Shown one piece after another: positions 57,346 to 64,000 of a DNA stretch of 64,000 nucleotides. Made by a program: the position numbers and the translations under genes. Numbering within the stretch: position 1 is the stretch's first letter; every line of letters starts with the position of its first letter. The DNA is taken from the NCBI RefSeq assembly GCF_903645315.1, contig NZ_CAHJXL010000001.1, positions 3,334,227 to 3,398,226 on the forward strand. Reading direction: 5' to 3'. This DNA comes from Victivallis sp. Marseille-Q1083 (GTDB taxonomy: Bacteria > Verrucomicrobiota > Lentisphaeria > Victivallales > Victivallaceae). The notes below the pieces were generated by a model. It had not been told where the DNA came from and did no database searches. It saw only the letters and a program-made list of their open reading frames with translations.

Positions 57346-58443
57346 ATGCTTTATCTGCTCGAGAATGTCGACCTCTTCGGTTTTTCACTGCGGTTGTTCG
57401 GTTATGTCACCTTCCGGGCCGGCGGCGCGGCGCTGACGGCGATGCTGTTCGTCATGTTGTTCGGTCCCTTTACCGTGCGGCTGCTGAAGCGTTACCGGGC
57501 GCTGGCGATGGACCGCTACAAGGATGTGCTGCCGGAGGGATTCATCGACAAACGGAAAAATGCGACGCCGAGTATGGGCGGGCTGCTGATGCTGGCCGGC
57601 GTCGCGCTGGCGACGGTGTTGTGGACCGAATTGTTCAATCCGACCGTGCTGGCTTTGCTGTTCTGTACCGTGCTGATGGGGCTCATCGGTTTCGCCGACG
57701 ACTATGTCAAAGTGACGCGCAATCCGAAGGGAATTTCGGCCCGGGCCAAGTTCCTGGCGCAATGCCTGGTGGCGGCCGGAACCATATTGTTCCTCTACTG
57801 GCAGCCGTTCCAGCCGGAACTGGCGGAACAGATGAATAAGCTGTTCGTCCCGTTCGTCAAGGAACCGGTGCTGCAGAGTCAATGGGTGCTGCTGCTGGAA
57901 ATGGTCGTCATCGTCGGCGCGTCCAACGCGGTCAATCTGACCGACGGCAAGGACGGCTTGGCGACCGGCAGCGTCATCTTCTGCGCTTTGACTTATGCGG
58001 TGATCGCCTACGTCTGCGGCCACCGGGTCTTTGCGGAATATTTGAACGTGCCGGGCATTCCGGGCGCCAGCGAAGGCGTGGTGTTCGCCGCGGCGGTCAT
58101 CGGCGCCTGCATCGGTTTTTTGTGGCACAACTGCTACCCGGCCTCGATGTTCATGGGCGATACCGGCAGCCTGGCGCTCGGCGGCGCCATCGGTTTGCTG
58201 GCGGTGCTGGTGCGGCAGGAGTTGCTGCTGGTGCTGACCGGCGGCGTCTTTGTCATGGAGGCGCTGTCGGTGGTCATTCAGGTCGCTTCGTTCAAGCTGA
58301 CCGGCAAACGGGTGTTTCTCTGTGCGCCGATCCATCACCATTTCGAGCGCCGGGGCTGGACCGAGACGCAGATTGTCGTGCGGTTCTGGATTCTGGCCGG
58401 CATTTTCGCGCTGCTGTCGCTGGCGTCATTGAAACTGCGCTAG
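57346..58443 (+). CDS. mraY: Phospho-N-acetylmuramoyl-pentapeptide transferase MraY, 365 aa
   Basis: Makes lipid I from UDP-MurNAc-pentapeptide and undecaprenyl phosphate. KNATPSMGGLL near 66, FADDYVKV (catalytic Asp pair near 117), NLTDGKDGLA near 197 and HNCYPASMFMGDTGSLALGG near 261 are MraY motifs; ten membrane segments, full length. GGAG is 6 bases before the ATG. The stop codon TAG belongs to a CTAG that is duplicated at the far end of the IS element, so the gene survived the insertion intact. No other cell-wall gene flanks it here. A 12-bp palindrome TTTTAGCTAAAA (57315-57326) and a GGCTTGGC/GCCAAGCC hairpin (57279-57307) lie in its leader. Confidence 0.96.
   Translation: MLYLLENVDLFGFSLRLFGYVTFRAGGAALTAMLFVMLFGPFTVRLLKRYRALAMDRYKDVLPEGFIDKRKNATPSMGGLLMLAGVALATVLWTELFNPTVLALLFCTVLMGLIGFADDYVKVTRNPKGISARAKFLAQCLVAAGTILFLYWQPFQPELAEQMNKLFVPFVKEPVLQSQWVLLLEMVVIVGASNAVNLTDGKDGLATGSVIFCALTYAVIAYVCGHRVFAEYLNVPGIPGASEGVVFAAAVIGACIGFLWHNCYPASMFMGDTGSLALGGAIGLLAVLVRQELLLVLTGGVFVMEALSVVIQVASFKLTGKRVFLCAPIHHHFERRGWTETQIVVRFWILAGIFALLSLASLKLR
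58440..58443. repeat. Left target-site duplication of the IS element (CTAG)
   Basis: CTAG here (its TAG is the mraY stop) is repeated at 60025-60028 immediately outside the other end of the element. Four bases is the size expected for IS1380-family insertions. Confidence 0.85.
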
Positions 58444-60024
58444 CCTGAATGTTGCATGAAACTTTCGAATCGTCGAGAAATGTTCAGAAGATTCGGAAGT
58501 TTTTATTTTCAGAGTCGGATATTGTCGTTTTTTTGCAAATTGAGCATATTCCCCCTTTCCCCCGTTGTTGTTCGGCGAGCCGGTGACAGCTCTCCAAGGT
58601 TTTATTCCCAAGCGATGATTTTCGCAGCGATCAAGCGGAGGAGTTCCTGATTTGGACAAGCACTTGAAAGAGCAACATAAATTTTTCTGGTATTCCGCCG
58701 AATAATGGCACCGATTTTCACCAGGTATAAGCGAATGCTGCCGCAGGTAGCCTCGGCAAATTGAGTTCCTGTCAACAACAATGCCCGAAACCGTTCCATG
58801 AGAATATAAGCCAAACTTGAAAGCAGAAGCCGGAATTGATTTGCCGCAAAGTCATGGCAGCTCGTCCGATCAGCGAAAAGATCCAGCTGCTGTTCCTTGA
58901 TCCTGTTTTCCATCTCACCTCGGGCGCAATAGACTTTTTCATAAAGATATTGTCCATCATCATCAAGATTGGTGACGATAAAACGATTATTCGGTCCGGG
59001 GGAGTTGAATTCCGCTTTGGCAATCACCCGGCGCGGGTATTTCCAAGTTCCTGCCGCATATTCGAACTGAGTAAACAGTTTTGCTTTTTCATGTGTTTCG
59101 TTGTAAAGTGCTTCCGCTTTCACTTGAAGATCTTTTGATAATTCCAGCAAACGTGGATTTTTCGCCAATCCGACAATATATTTGACCTCATTTTTATCAC
59201 ACCAGTTCAGCATTTTCTGCCGACAAAAGCCACTGTCTCCCCGGAAAATAATCTTAACCTTCGGCCATTTCTGCCGAAAGCGCTTTACCAGTAGCGAGAG
59301 AATCGCCCAAGCATGCTTGGCCGCATCAATTTTTGATGGACGCAAATAAGCCACAAGCAATTGATCCCCGCAGAAAACATACAACGGCAAAAAGCAATAG
59401 TGGTCATAATAGCCATGAAAAAAGCGATTTTCCTGCATCCCGTAAGTGAGGTCATCGGTAGCATCGAAATCAAGAATCAATTCTCGAGGCGGCGTGGAAA
59501 AACTTTCGATAAAGAATTCGACAAACAATCGGCTCAAATCTACGCAAGCACGACGATCGATTCCATTTTCGAATCGACATAAAGTGCTTGGAGTGGCGAG
59601 TTGACGATCACGACCGACAACAGTTTGAATCAGCGGATCAGTTCGCAATTCATGATGGTCATTGAGATCTTCATGGCCGGCAACCAAACCAAAAACTCGT
59701 TGACGAAGCATGCTCAGATAGGAATGCTCAACTTTTCCGGGCTGTCGAAGATCAAAAGAATCCAGCAGGTTACCGGCGCGCCGGGTCAAACCGAGTTTGC
59801 GGTCGAATTCTTTCACAAAAAGCAACCCGCCGTCACTGCTGATATCTCCACCGGCGAAATTGAATTCAATTTTTCTGCTTTTCGGACCTTGAAAGACCGG
59901 AATCGAAACATTACATTTTGTCATTGGCAGACCTCGGCGTTATATTGTGATGTAAGATATTACAATATAATACGTTAGTCGAGAATCTGCCTCTTTGTTT
60001 TTGAAAATTTACGCAATATTCAGG
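58444..60024 (-). mobile_element. Complete IS1380-like insertion sequence, 1581 bp
   Basis: The ends are imperfect inverted repeats: CCTGAATGTTGCATGAAACT from 58444 and CCTGAATATTGCGTAAATTT read inward from 60024; 11 of the first 12 bases match, then alignment needs one gap. Starting with CC is typical of the family. A 4-bp duplication (CTAG) flanks it, so this was a simple insertion with no deletion. It carries one intact transposase gene on the minus strand. Confidence 0.88.
58602..59924 (-). CDS. IS1380-family transposase, 440 aa
   Basis: DDE transposase of the IS4/IS1380 group. ISSDGGLLFVKEFD near residue 30 is the N-terminal family motif, DFDATDD (about 149-155) supplies the first acidic residue, FRGDSGFCRQKML (about 227-239) the second, and the Y/E-rich block YCARGEMENRIKEQQLDLFADRTSCHDF (split here by its order) holds the catalytic Glu (Y-x-x-R-G-x-x-E-N-x-I-K-E). 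Full length with no interruption, so the element may be active. Its own composition is lower in GC than the flanking core genes. Confidence 0.93.
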   Translation of the reverse strand: MTKCNVSIPVFQGPKSRKIEFNFAGGDISSDGGLLFVKEFDRKLGLTRRAGNLLDSFDLRQPGKVEHSYLSMLRQRVFGLVAGHEDLNDHHELRTDPLIQTVVGRDRQLATPSTLCRFENGIDRRACVDLSRLFVEFFIESFSTPPRELILDFDATDDLTYGMQENRFFHGYYDHYCFLPLYVFCGDQLLVAYLRPSKIDAAKHAWAILSLLVKRFRQKWPKVKIIFRGDSGFCRQKMLNWCDKNEVKYIVGLAKNPRLLELSKDLQVKAEALYNETHEKAKLFTQFEYAAGTWKYPRRVIAKAEFNSPGPNNRFIVTNLDDDGQYLYEKVYCARGEMENRIKEQQLDLFADRTSCHDFAANQFRLLLSSLAYILMERFRALLLTGTQFAEATCGSIRLYLVKIGAIIRRNTRKIYVALSSACPNQELLRLIAAKIIAWE

Positions 60025-60028
60025 CTAG
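60025..60028. repeat. Right target-site duplication (CTAG)
   Basis: Matches 58440-58443. The sequence before insertion can be restored as ...CTGCGCTAGGAATGGG..., so mraY and the AT-rich array were already neighbours. Confidence 0.85.
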
Positions 60029-60030
60029 GA

Positions 60031-60633
60031 ATGGGTGATGGAATCGGAATGTTGAATTATAGAAGAAAATATTACGAGAAAAAACTGAAAATTTTGGCAA
60101 TAGATAATTCTCCCGATGGTAGTATTATTGATAGTCGAGCTTTTGGGGATATATGGACAGGAATTGATCCGGAACATGTTCTTCGTTTTGCAACTTCTGC
60201 TGAATTGATAGAAAAATTGAAAAATAAAATTAAGAATTATGATTCTGAAGGCGAATGTGGACAATGTATCAAAAAACTTACTATTGTTGCGCATGGTTGG
60301 GAAGCTACGGGATATATTGCTGAAGTTGCCGTGACGCACAGTATACTTACAGCGCCACCAATGCTTCGTCAAAGAGATGTAATTAAAGTTCTTGATGATA
60401 TAAAAGGATTATTATGCCGAGATGCTACAATAAATTTTGCGATGTGTTATACTGGTGATGGTGAAGAAGGAGATAAATTGGGGCAGGCACTTGCTAATTA
60501 TTTTGATAGTGCTATTGTATTGCAACAAGGACAAAGAAGTTCTATTTTGGTATATTCTATTTGGAATATATTCTATAAATATCCTTTTAAAATAAAATTT
60601 TTTACTCCAATAGGAAAGAATGAAAATAAATGA
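60031..60633 (+). CDS. AT-rich orphan polymorphic-toxin-like tip with His/Cys dyad, 200 aa
   Basis: Not recognised by family with certainty. The ATG at 60031 is the first after the IS; another is at 60049. The segment KLTIVAHGW (His88) followed 50 residues later by INFAMCYTGDGEEGDKLGQALANYF (Cys139) has the strand-HG ... strand-C-x-T-G-x5-G-x3-LA pattern of caspase/gingipain-like (clan CD) domains found at C-termini of Rhs and related toxins. GC content is far below the host genes. There is no Rhs core in front of it, so it is an orphan tip. The ATG of the next gene overlaps its stop by 4 bases, typical of a toxin-immunity pair. Confidence 0.6.
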   Translation: MGDGIGMLNYRRKYYEKKLKILAIDNSPDGSIIDSRAFGDIWTGIDPEHVLRFATSAELIEKLKNKIKNYDSEGECGQCIKKLTIVAHGWEATGYIAEVAVTHSILTAPPMLRQRDVIKVLDDIKGLLCRDATINFAMCYTGDGEEGDKLGQALANYFDSAIVLQQGQRSSILVYSIWNIFYKYPFKIKFFTPIGKNENK

Positions 60634-61070
60634 AATATAAAAAAACAATACTAGTAATCTTCTTTTTTTTGATCTTTTTAATAATTCTAACTACTCTATG
60701 TCGGAATAAACCACCAGAATATATTTCTGGTTTTGTAAATTTCTATTTCAATGGAAAAAATTATGATCTGAGTCTCTATAATGAGAAAGCTTATTTGATA
60801 TCAGAAGGATTTGTAGGAGCTACCGAAGCTAGTGAGCTAGGGCTAAATGGAAAAGCAATTTTTGGTCACATTCAGCTGGAAGATGATGACCGCAAACTGA
60901 CTTGTTATATGGCTAACGATGAAATCTTTATTGTAATACGTCGGGGAGAGGCGGGGGGTATTTATAAATTAACCTCAACTTCTTTGATGGCAGAAATAAT
61001 AAAAAACGTATTTTATAAAGTTGTTCCTGATTCTTTAGAGACAGATGGAATTAGTCAAAAAGATTTATAA
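60630..61070 (+). CDS. Membrane-anchored small protein, candidate immunity protein, 146 aa
   Basis: Starts inside the previous stop codon (ATGA). One N-terminal membrane segment (about 5-22, KKTILVIFFFLIFLIILTT) and a soluble remainder with strand-rich patterns (FYFNGKNYDLSLYNEKAYLI, DEIFIVIRRGEAGGIYKL). No known family that I can name. Strong coupling to the tip at 60031 and low GC suggest an immunity role. Direction of the soluble part relative to the membrane is not clear. Confidence 0.5.
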   Translation: MKYKKTILVIFFFLIFLIILTTLCRNKPPEYISGFVNFYFNGKNYDLSLYNEKAYLISEGFVGATEASELGLNGKAIFGHIQLEDDDRKLTCYMANDEIFIVIRRGEAGGIYKLTSTSLMAEIIKNVFYKVVPDSLETDGISQKDL

Positions 61071-61128
61071 TTAGTAAGTAACGCTCATAAATTATAACTT
61101 TGATATAATTACTGGCTGGGAGTTACCG

Positions 61129-61551
61129 ATGATTGAGTCTGCAGAAGAATTTGTTCGTTTAAGAGAAAGCGAAATTGAAGAAGAATATGAACGGGCTGCA
61201 ACTGATGAGTTGCCTTTAAATGTTTGCTTGGATATAATTGCTCGTTTTCCACATAAGAAACAATGGGTTGTTATCAACAAAACAGTGCCAATTGAAATTT
61301 TAGAATTATTAGCCGATGATGAAGATGTTCGTTTTGAGGTTGCGACAAAACGTAAATTAACGAGGGATTTATTCCTAAAACTATCCAAAGATCCTGATGC
61401 AACGGTGCGGGAAAGGATTGCTTGTAATGCAAAAACTCCAATTGACATTTTAAGAGGAATGTATCCGGATGAATGGGATTATATTAATGAAACTTTAGAG
61501 GAGCGCATAAAAGCTTATGAAGAAAAGAAAAATAATTTAATTGGAAGATAG
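61129..61551 (+). CDS. Leucine-rich-variant/HEAT-like helical protein, candidate immunity protein, 140 aa
   Basis: GGGAG is 6 bases before the ATG. The middle is built of ~24-residue helical repeats: LPLNVCLDIIARFPHKKQWVVINKT, VPIEILELLADDEDVRFEVATKRK, LTRDLFLKLSKDPDATVRERIACNAK, TPIDILRGMYPDEWDY in order (each written in pieces). This is the LRV pattern, which occurs in many bacterial immunity proteins. No membrane segment; cytoplasmic. Located between a toxin tip and an Rhs fragment. Confidence 0.6.
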   Translation: MIESAEEFVRLRESEIEEEYERAATDELPLNVCLDIIARFPHKKQWVVINKTVPIEILELLADDEDVRFEVATKRKLTRDLFLKLSKDPDATVRERIACNAKTPIDILRGMYPDEWDYINETLEERIKAYEEKKNNLIGR

Positions 61552-61561
61552 TAACTTGCAT

Positions 61562-61632
61562 CGCACAAGGAAAATCGAGCGTAAATCTGTTGTGTTTTTG
61601 TTCTGCTATTAAATGCTGATAGAACCTTGTGC
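61562..61632. repeat. 8-bp inverted repeat bordering the Rhs fragment
   Basis: GCACAAGG shortly after the LRV gene is repeated inverted as CCTTGTGC just before the Rhs homology begins, about 55 bases apart. The intervening sequence has no gene. Confidence 0.35.
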
Positions 61633-62889
61633 GAATATGAGAATATCTATGACTATCTGAACTTTCGGAGCAAGCAGAAGGTGATCCTGAAATCGGGCGC
61701 GACCGGCCAGACGCGGTCGGAGGTTGCTTACGTCTACGACGGCTGGAATGTGGTGGGAGTCTACGACACCACGACGGCGGCGCCGACTTCCTTGAAAGGG
61801 TATCTGTGGGGCGAAGACCTCTCCGGCAGTTTACAGGGCGCCGGCGGGGTCGGCGGACTGCTGTCGGAGAAGCGCGGCGGGCAGACTTATCTGCCGGTCT
61901 ATGACGGCAATGGCAATATCATGAGTTACCTGAACGCGCCGACCAAGGCTTCGGTGGCGGAGTACATCTACGACGCCTTCGGCCGTACCATATCTTCGAG
62001 CGGCGCGGAGGCCGACAACTTCACCTACCGGTTCAGCACGAAGTCGATGGACGGTAACGGCCTCTACTACTACGGTTACCGTTATTACGATCCGCAGCAT
62101 GGAAGATGGATCAGCCGCGATCCGATCGAGGAAAATGGCGGCGTGAACTTGTATGGAATGGTAGAAAATTGTACCATTAATAAATTTGATATTAATGGCT
62201 TAGCTTGGAAAATTGAACGTGATAAAAAATCGTGGGCTAACGCAACTAGAGAATTTCTTGAAGATGATTTTAAAATATTATCTGAATTGGTTAAATTAGA
62301 GCATTCTGAGCTAAAGAAATGGTTAAAAAATGAAGATGGTTCTGAGGTATCTGATAAAGACTTAGAAACAAAATGTAATTTTAAAGTTCCCAATACGATG
62401 ATCGTTTATACGACTAAATCTCAATGGGGAGATGGTTGGCTTGCTTTTGTAACACAATTAAAATTAATGGCTGTAAAATCGGGAAATAATTATAGAAAAA
62501 AGAATTATTTAGTTATTGAACATAAATGGGCTAGCTCTGAATCATTGTTTATTTCGCTATGGGAAACTGATGGAATTGTCGCTTTTGCATTTGCTGGGCA
62601 TGGTTCTACGGCAGGTTTTAATTCTGAACCGACTAGTATTCATGAAGTTAATACAAGTTCTTGGGATGTGAATCCTCCATATAAGCTTCAAGCGATAGGA
62701 GCCTATACTTGCTTCAGTTCAACGCGACATTTTGCGGGTATAAATGCAGATGGTACTCCTATTGATCGAAGCTGGAAGGATTTGATTTCTTCTTTAGGAA
62801 CTTTTTTAGGTTTTAGTGGCGCTGTTAATTATTTTACTGCGTCATATTATCTAGAGGCAATAAATATAGGGTATGATAATATTCCGTAA
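61627..62889 (+). pseudogene. 5'-truncated Rhs core fused to an AT-rich toxin tip, 420 codons
   Basis: Residues 1-190 are the end of an Rhs core: YD-repeat remnants and the diagnostic YYYGYRYYDPQHGRWISRDPIEENGG-VNLYGM block (about 147-178). It starts at a TTG with no SD and has no N-terminal delivery region, so it is a displaced 3' cassette rather than a working toxin gene. At about base 62155 the composition changes from GC-rich to AT-rich exactly where the variable tip begins. The tip (about 192-420) contains AFAGHGS (His325) and IGAYTCFSS (Cys362), again an HG ... C arrangement. It is annotated as a remnant because expression is doubtful; recombination could restore it. Confidence 0.75.
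61678..61927 (+). repeat. Rhs-core direct repeat, copy 1 (250 bp)
   Basis: Matches 63751-64000 without gaps at a constant offset of 2073 bases; about nine bases in ten are the same by hand count. Weaker similarity continues upstream to about 61633. Confidence 0.85.
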
Positions 62890-62912
62890 AAATTGGAGGT
62901 TAAGTAAATAAT

Positions 62913-63275
62913 ATGATTAGCATGAGTAAAATCAAAGTGTTTTTTAAAATAATTGATCTAGTATTATTAATTGTTACACTCAATTGTATTGCAGAATATT
63001 ACTATAAAAAAATAGTTATAAATGAAGTCGAGAAAATAATCTACAATGTCTATAAAGAGAAAGCAAGTCATGAATCACAGGAAATAATTTTTACTCCGGA
63101 AATTTTACAAATATTGGAAAGTGTAAATAATATATCCGGTAAATATCATGGTGCAAGTCTATTAATATACGAAATCACTGTACTGATGATTATCTATCTA
63201 ATATCAATTTATTCACGAAGGAAATTACTATGTCGTGTTTCTACAAATAGGTACAATAACTACAAGGATATCTAA
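62913..63275 (+). CDS. Two-segment membrane protein, candidate immunity protein, 120 aa
   Basis: GGAGG lies 13 bases before the ATG at 62913. Hydrophobic segments at about 9-27 and 83-99, a lysine-rich loop between (KKIVINEVEKIIYNVYKEK) and a basic C-terminal tail. Very AT-rich. No family recognised. It follows the toxin tip by 23 bases on the same strand, the place where an immunity gene is expected. Confidence 0.5.
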   Translation: MISMSKIKVFFKIIDLVLLIVTLNCIAEYYYKKIVINEVEKIIYNVYKEKASHESQEIIFTPEILQILESVNNISGKYHGASLLIYEITVLMIIYLISIYSRRKLLCRVSTNRYNNYKDI

Positions 63276-63303
63276 TACAAAGTTTCAGACTTTAAGATAT
63301 TTG

Positions 63304-64000
63304 ATGCTGAGTGATGCGTCATATAGCTACACCTTGAACATCAAGGACCAGCGGATCAAGACGACGCTGGCGGACGGCAGTTACTGGGATTACGCGTATG
63401 ACAACTATGGACAGGTGATCAACGCGGTGCGTAAAAACGCTTCCGGAGGGATCGCCGGGCAGTCGTTCGATTACAGCTTCGACCAGGTCGGCAACCGTCA
63501 GTCCGCCTTCCAGGGAACGACCGGCAGTGATTCCCAGTGGAGCTATACGGTGAATGCGGTGAATCAGTATTCGCTGATCACCGAGCCGAATGGCACCACT
63601 TACGCACAGGTGCATGATGCGGACGGCAACCTGACCGGCAGTTATACGACGCAATATACATACGATGCCGAGAACCGTCTGAAAACGGCGGATGTCGGGA
63701 CTTATCGTTATGAATATACTTACGACTATTTAAGCCGGCGGATCAGGCAGAAGGTGATTCTGAAATCGGGCGCGACCGGCCAGACGCAGTCAGAGGTCGC
63801 TTACGTCTACGACGGCTGGAATGTAGTAGGCGTCTACGACACCACGACGGCGACGCCGACTTTCCAGAAGGGGTATTTGTGGGGCGAAGACCTCTCCGGC
63901 AGTCTGCAAGGCGCCGGCGGGGTCGGCGGGCTGCTGGCGGAAAAGCGCGGCGGACAGACCTATCTGCCGGTCTATGACGGCAACGGCAATATCATGAGCT
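63304..64000 (+). pseudogene. Second Rhs core fragment, 5'-truncated, continues past the window
   Basis: The frame is open from 63304 (ATG) to the end. The predicted product has YD-type repeats (DYAYDNYGQVINAV, FDYSFDQVGNRQS, YTYDAENRLKTADV, YEYTYDYLSRRI) and the same VAYVYDGWNVVGVYDTTT...GYLWGEDLSGSLQGAGGVGGLL segment as copy 1. Homology begins near 63316, directly after AT-rich sequence; no signal or N-terminal Rhs region precedes it. Its tip lies beyond the window. GC content returns to host level here. Confidence 0.75.
63751..64000 (+). repeat. Rhs-core direct repeat, copy 2
   Basis: Partner of 61678-61927. The match extends to the last base of the window, so its full length is unknown. 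Confidence 0.85.

What the first reader, a model, noticed from the sequence alone, without database searches (positions are those of the whole stretch)
60025..64000. Rhs-type polymorphic toxin cassette array without its parent gene
Seen: low-GC tips, short AT-rich genes after each tip, two GC-rich Rhs core pieces lacking 5' ends, all on one strand. Known: Rhs systems carry a main gene followed by displaced 3' tips with immunity genes that are swapped in by recombination. Inference: this is such an array, but the parent rhs gene is not upstream (mraY is), so either the parent lies elsewhere or the array is a relic that still feeds it.
Basis: partly seen in the sequence, partly recalled or inferred. 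Interest (0 to 1): 0.78.

Follow-up and report, generated by a model that had tools for sequence, protein, structure and literature searches.

The report
Displaced toxin-tip array without carrier gene
A run of spare toxin tips with their probable protective genes sits in a bacterium without the carrier gene they once belonged to; carriers with matching sequence lie elsewhere in the same genome, and a mobile element cuts off the front of the first tip.

Summary
Window 60025-64000 carries, on one strand, a coreless tip (tip 1), a small gene overlapping its stop, a 140-aa LRV-like gene, a 5'-truncated Rhs core with AT-rich tip 2, another small gene, and a second truncated core running to the window's end.

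The genome has 46 Rhs cores. Two full-length parents of the same core clade lie at C1:3.25 and C1:3.85 Mb; core 2 is 98.7% identical to the first over 680 bp (673 in the window). So "the parent lies elsewhere" is supported. Use of a window tip by a parent is not shown.

The copy at C2:432197 has complementary flanks: a core without its tip, same target duplication. The place behind mraY is therefore probably an IS-IS junction (rearrangement or misjoin). Just past the window lie three one-N joins with exact 137-bp overlaps.

Displaced Rhs arrays are known. The surprise is in a relative (G025, one contig): about 32 displaced cassettes in 49 kb without a parent, two same-core parents elsewhere on the contig, and two cassettes whose tips are 99-100% identical to tips beside one parent.

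The parts
57346..58443 (+). mraY; its stop codon lies in the left IS target duplication
   Evidence: homologue at E<=0.001 in 41 of 41 genomes
58444..60024 (-). IS1380-family insertion element (transposase frame 58602-59924), CTAG at 58440-58443 and 60025-60028
   Evidence: NF033539 394.3 bits; 49 match rows in the genome, merged or dropped by me to 42 places; ends and duplications
60025..60633 (+). tip 1: toxin-tip gene without a core, opening at the IS
   Evidence: weak DUF4347, E 0.017
60630..61070 (+). probable immunity gene 1 (146 aa, hydrophobic N-terminus by eye), start overlaps the stop of tip 1
   Evidence: no Pfam or NCBIfam match at E<=1
61129..61551 (+). 140-aa LRV-like gene; three copies found in the array loci, each just before a core truncated at the same parent position
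   Evidence: 79-85% identity; LRV E 0.12, below cut-off; truncation point 5365 three times; dN/dS 0.21-0.29
61636..62169 (+). Rhs core fragment 1, 5'-truncated, 88.2% DNA identity to the parent over 534 bp
62164..62889 (+). tip 2, AT-rich C-terminal domain in one frame with core 1 (frame 61627-62889)
   Evidence: 39% relative behind a core in G025; no Pfam match at E<=1
62913..63275 (+). probable immunity gene 2 (120 aa, hydrophobic stretches near both ends by eye)
63328..64000 (+). Rhs core fragment 2, 5'-truncated, 98.7% to the parent at C1:3253413-3254092 (680 bp, 673 in the window); frame open at the window end
   Evidence: the end is an N join

Best explanation
The stretch is part of a displaced (orphan) Rhs tip/immunity array: toxin tips with probable immunity genes, left behind when newer tips were recombined onto an Rhs gene, each as a rule keeping a 3' piece of the core (shown by anatomy and homology). 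It has no parent at its site. Two full-length Rhs genes of the same core clade lie elsewhere on the contig, and core 2 is long and similar enough to recombine with one of them (shown: 98.7% over 680 bp; inferred: that it does). It sits behind mraY because an IS1380 element entered the first cassette at its core-tip junction and IS copies then exchanged flanks, by a real IS-IS rearrangement or an assembly misjoin (inferred from complementary flanks). Likely use (inferred): a store of immunity genes and a reserve of alternative tips.
For: 46 Rhs cores; 22 rows of 87-100% core DNA over about 190 bp or more, at five loci, the window's own included. Two full-length parents sharing 6087 bp at 97.3%, and core 2 at 98.7% over 680 bp. 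Tip families shared across loci: tip 1 relatives at C2:422k, C2:426k, C1:3255k and as the tail of a 1726-aa Rhs frame at C2:13k; one tip type on a full-length parent (C1:3254k) and as three orphans at C1:3.85 Mb, 69-70% identity; one tip 99.6% identical in two arrays. dN/dS 0.21-0.43 in 9 of 9 pairs by one method; a second method failed for 2 of the 9. IS: C2:432197 has a tipless core on its left, the window IS a coreless tip on its right, both CTAG and same orientation; 8 of 30 copies read have unequal duplications, and some of 28 aligned copies carry mixed variant patterns.
Against: No parent was found with a tip nearly identical to tip 1 or tip 2. No genome of the same genus was among the 40 relatives, so no strain comparison. 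The proposed original neighbour of mraY could not be confirmed. The window IS has equal duplications on its two sides, which also fits a plain insertion there. CTAG is a common duplication among the copies, so its match at the two IS copies is weak evidence. Only 30 of about 42 IS places were read at both ends, and one of the 8 unequal ones lies across an N. Toxicity and immunity are untested.
Confidence: 0.77

Rival explanations
1. Decaying relic: leftovers of an Rhs locus torn apart by IS elements, with no function.
For: Tip 1 has lost its core; one tip at C2:424-426k is split by another repeated 1.6-kb element; IS1380 is frequent near Rhs cores, 12 of 42 places within 5 kb against 2.16 expected. 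In G025 some displaced core pieces carry stops (for example C1:506343, three).
Against: Tip 2, both small genes and the LRV-like gene are open frames; dN/dS 0.21-0.43 for related genes.
Confidence: 0.15
2. The parentless state behind mraY is purely an assembly artefact: mraY and the array are not neighbours, and the array continues from C2:432 kb. (This overlaps with the best explanation, which leaves misjoin or rearrangement open; the odds are not exclusive.)
For: Complementary flanks at two IS copies; three N joins with exact 137-bp overlaps within 2.6 kb just past the window; a tip stretch 100% identical over 516 bp to another array after the second join.
Against: None of the N joins is at this IS; many IS copies carry their own variants, so copies seem to have been resolved one by one; in the C2 stretch read (408-440 kb) the longest core of this clade also lacks its 5' end, so the joined array would still show no parent there.
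Confidence: 0.35
3. IS-flanked mobile unit: two inverted IS1380 copies carry the array as a composite element.
For: IS copies in opposite orientation at C1:3392.7k and C1:3399.2k enclose the array.
Against: The right copy has unequal duplications and lies across N joins; no second copy of the unit among the five array loci compared; IS enrichment near Rhs follows the density of YTAR target sites, 15.35 per kb in the window array against 2.04 in 20 sampled 10-kb stretches, some of which hold Rhs genes themselves.
Confidence: 0.05

Closest known systems
Orphan rhs-CT/rhsI and cdiA-CT/cdiI modules (PMC3150448: passages and Discussion read; PMC3967940: abstract and passages read)
   Same: 5'-truncated core pieces, junction motif, tip followed by a small gene; shared core of a length and identity like the 522 bp at 95% that recombined in Salmonella; IS elements in orphan genes are noted there too
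   Different: No main gene directly upstream; parents are on the same contig but far away
Neisseria mafB-CT cassettes (PMC4287609: passages read)
   Same: Cassettes with immunity genes, some silent; that paper notes loci with cassettes but no full-length mafB (N. flavescens, N. cinerea)
   Different: Different carrier protein (MafB, not Rhs)
Polymorphic toxins with caspase-like peptidase tips (PMC3482391: passages read)
   Same: A conserved His and Cys in tip 1's family suggest such an enzyme; the paper's table lists lentisphaerae for a TcdB/TcaC-type route with RHS repeats
   Different: No family or fold match could be shown here
IS1380-family insertion sequences
   Same: Family transposase, 1581-bp element, 4-bp target duplication
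   Different: None noted; here it broke the first cassette

Membership tests
Displaced Rhs tip/immunity array | 5'-truncated Rhs core pieces ending in the conserved junction | tested here: met
   met for core 1; core 2 is cut by the window end before its junction, and tip 1 has no core
Displaced Rhs tip/immunity array | Each tip followed by a small gene on the same strand | tested here: met
   anatomy only
Displaced Rhs tip/immunity array | Homology to a full-length Rhs of the same genome | tested here: met
   98.7% over 680 bp and 88.2% over 534 bp
Displaced Rhs tip/immunity array | Lies directly downstream of its main gene (usual, not universal) | tested here: not met
   mraY and an IS lie upstream
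Displaced Rhs tip/immunity array | Tip toxic, small gene protective | not testable with these tools
   needs expression tests
Caspase-like peptidase toxin tip | A His and a Cys conserved in the family | tested here: met
   H81 and C132 invariant in the six rows of A1; one row is a fragment whose second residue was placed in the His column by chance, so 5 rows bear on the His
Caspase-like peptidase toxin tip | Fold of that clan | tested here: inconclusive
   DUF4347 E 0.015 in 1 of 6 members, below cut-off; no PDB sequence match better than E 0.05; single-sequence models pLDDT 41.7 and 35.0
IS1380 | Family transposase | tested here: met
   NF033539 394.3 bits, cut-off 180
IS1380 | Defined ends and target duplication | tested here: met
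   equal 4-bp flanks in 22 of 30 copies read, this copy included
Composite transposon | Matching outer target duplication | tested here: inconclusive
   right end lies across N joins

The most novel reading that the evidence does not exclude
In this bacterial order, displaced Rhs cassettes are kept in remote libraries without a carrier gene (about 32 in a row in G025) that exchange cassettes with distant parents by non-reciprocal recombination through the shared core. A remote donor would avoid the loss of intervening modules that makes recombination with a distal tip of the same locus costly.
Probability: 0.35. Interest if true: 0.66.

Novelty: new member of a known kind. Interest (0 to 1): 0.42.

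Why it matters
How bacteria store and reload toxin tips without losing immunity is an open question; the authors of PMC3150448 (Discussion read) note that simple recombination with a distal orphan would delete the modules between. A genome with full-length parents in some places and a long parentless array of the same core in another makes a remote-donor answer testable. The window is a small, IS-damaged example.

Tried and rejected
Gene order behind mraY: frames from both possible right flanks matched none of 29 mraY loci, which reach at most 1.5 kb past mraY, and these relatives share no fixed neighbour, so this test of the IS-flank swap gave nothing. GC skew of 27 stretches did not separate the two arrangements. 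IS enrichment near Rhs looked like a role for the IS until target-site density was counted. Promoter-like sites, 23 against 12.6 (sd 3.7) in shuffles, and 2 terminator-like sites were not used. Fold of the tips: low-confidence models, so no fold search was made. Profile comparison of the two tip families: no relation. I first took C2:8311-13491 (1726 aa) as a full parent; it starts at parent nt 1368, so it is a long truncated core. My first script for G025 tips found none (pattern too strict); the repeat captured 41 tips, 40 of them long enough to cluster, of which 21 are of the parentless array.

Full report
What is there. Window 60025-64000 (+) holds, in order: tip 1 (60025-60633), a 146-aa gene whose start overlaps the stop of tip 1 (60630-61070), a 140-aa LRV-like gene (61129-61551), an Rhs core fragment with tip 2 in one frame (61627-62889), a 120-aa gene (62913-63275) and a second core fragment whose frame is open at the window end. 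GC is 0.51-0.62 over the cores and 0.26-0.41 over tips and small genes. The first core matches TIGR03696 at 73.4 bits; the second matches Pfam RHS_repeat at 22.7 bits, cut-off 22. Tip 1, the LRV-like gene and the small genes reach no family cut-off, nor does tip 2 alone (Pfam only).

Where it lies. The window is G000:C1:3334227-3398226. An IS1380-family element, 1581 bp, fills 58444-60024 between mraY and tip 1, with CTAG on both sides; the stop codon of mraY is within the left CTAG. The window ends one base before a single N. This and two further single Ns (C1:3398227, 3398736, 3400840) each have an exact 137-bp repeat on either side, as when contigs are joined with their overlap left in. The tip stretch after the second N is 100% identical over 516 bp to one at C1:3860.6k. 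What follows core 2 is therefore uncertain.

Parents elsewhere. The genome has 46 Rhs cores over the model's cut-off. Core 1 has 28 DNA matches, itself included; the 22 strongest fall at five loci: C1:3.25 Mb, the window, C1:3.85 Mb, C2:0-18 kb and C2:423-432 kb. Two of these are headed by full-length genes of 2154 and 2230 aa that share 6087 bp at 97.3%; the first opens with what I read by eye as a signal peptide. A 1726-aa frame at C2:8311 begins only at parent nt 1368 and is a long truncated core. Core 2 is 98.7% identical to the first parent over 680 bp, 673 of them in the window; core 1 is 88.2% over 534 bp. In Salmonella, recombination between a main gene and an orphan sharing 522 bp at 95% is reported (PMC3967940, abstract and passages read).

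Signs of exchange. Tip families recur across loci. Tip 1's family has five places in G000, the window's own included, one of them the tail of the 1726-aa frame, and occurs in 4 of 197 genomes of the class; two of these four, G000 and G025, supplied the profile's rows. Another tip type is on the full-length gene at C1:3254k and as three orphans at C1:3.85 Mb (69-70%, a short shared core piece included); one tip is 99.6% identical in two arrays. Against this, no parent was found with a tip nearly identical to a window tip. Nine of nine pairs of related genes gave dN/dS 0.21-0.43 by the first method; the second method failed for two pairs. This speaks against decay, but only the LRV-like gene among them is from the window.

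The break at the left end. Among 30 IS1380 copies read at both ends (of about 42 places), 22 have equal 4-bp flanks and 8 do not (one of the 8 lies across an N), and some of the 28 copies aligned carry mixed variant patterns, so copies exchange sequence or flanks, or are misjoined. The copy at C2:432197 has, on its left, a core that runs into the IS at its junction motif and has no tip; the window copy has, on its right, a tip with no core. Both have CTAG and the same orientation, though CTAG is common among the copies. I take these as the two parts of one broken cassette, parted by an IS-IS rearrangement or a misjoin; the parts were not joined. Relatives could not confirm the original neighbour of mraY, and GC skew did not decide. 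IS1380 is frequent near Rhs cores (12 of 42 places within 5 kb, 2.16 expected), but its YTAR target stands at 15.35 per kb in the window array and 6.60-8.68 in the other arrays against 2.04 in the background sample, which is enough to explain it.

The tips. The tip 1 family keeps one His and one Cys (5 of 6 rows bear on the His). With the weak DUF4347 match of 1 of 6 members (E 0.015) this suggests, no more, a caspase-like peptidase; such tips are described in PMC3482391 (passages read). Structure models were poor, PDB sequence searches gave nothing better than E 0.05, and the two tip families do not match each other. The fold is open.

A larger relative. G025 (same order, one contig) has 70 Rhs cores. 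Between C1:482.6k and 531.3k stand about 32 displaced core pieces: 32 in the listed part, 32 by DNA, not quite the same set. No frame there reaches 400 aa, and at least one piece holds stops. A core of this array matches two long genes with the same first 60 residues, at C1:2232k (88%) and C1:3469k (78%); the array's first core piece matches the latter at 95% over 681 bp. Two stretches of the array match the array beside the second parent over 2031 bp at 96.5% and 2036 bp at 93.0%, with two tips 99-100% identical. The 21 tips captured from this array fall into 17 clusters. This shows cassettes shared between a parentless and a parent-linked array. It does not show direction, and neither parent's own tip had a partner among the 40 tips clustered.

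In print. I saw listings only, save where passages are named: Rhs with orphan, polymorphic toxin and immunity (20 of 82 papers listed), with orphan, cassette, array, recombination and toxin (15 of 15), with orphan, gene conversion and C-terminal (1 of 1), rearrangement hotspot with displaced and tips (3 of 3), Lentisphaer with polymorphic toxin (2 of 2), Victivallis with Rhs (none), mafB with cassette, recombination and orphan (8 of 15). None of the titles and abstract openings listed describes such arrays in this group; PMC3482391 does list lentisphaerae for one RHS-bearing route. Orphan arrays as such are well known: eleven pairs in one E. coli locus (PMC3150448), and loci with cassettes but no full-length gene in Neisseria (PMC4287609, passages read). 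That G000 belongs to the Lentisphaerae/Victivallales group is my inference from some of the 13 named loci, which also include Verrucomicrobia and others; the genome itself is unnamed.

Verdict. Ordinary in kind and well supported as a displaced Rhs array with parents elsewhere; its place behind mraY is likely an IS junction. The G025 array deserves the follow-up.

Noticed in passing
G025:C1:482600-531300 (L164-L167): About 32 displaced Rhs core pieces in a row without a full-length gene; same-core long genes elsewhere on the contig.
   Followed up: partly
G000:C1:3398227, 3398736, 3400840 (L089): Three single-N joins with exact 137-bp overlaps within 2.6 kb just past the window.
   Followed up: yes
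window 61129-61551; C1:3872264-3872680; C2:431113-431529: LRV-like gene found three times, each just before a core truncated at the same parent position.
   Followed up: partly
G025:C1:580906-583510 (L138): A tip 1-type tail and a tip 2-type cassette are neighbours here, as in the window.
   Followed up: no
IS1380 copies L059-L088: 8 of 30 copies have unequal flanking duplications and some show mixed variant patterns: exchange between copies or misjoins.
   Followed up: partly
C1:3854434-3857178 and C1:3862176-3864929: A 2.75-kb internal duplication of cassettes at 97.7% within one array.
   Followed up: no
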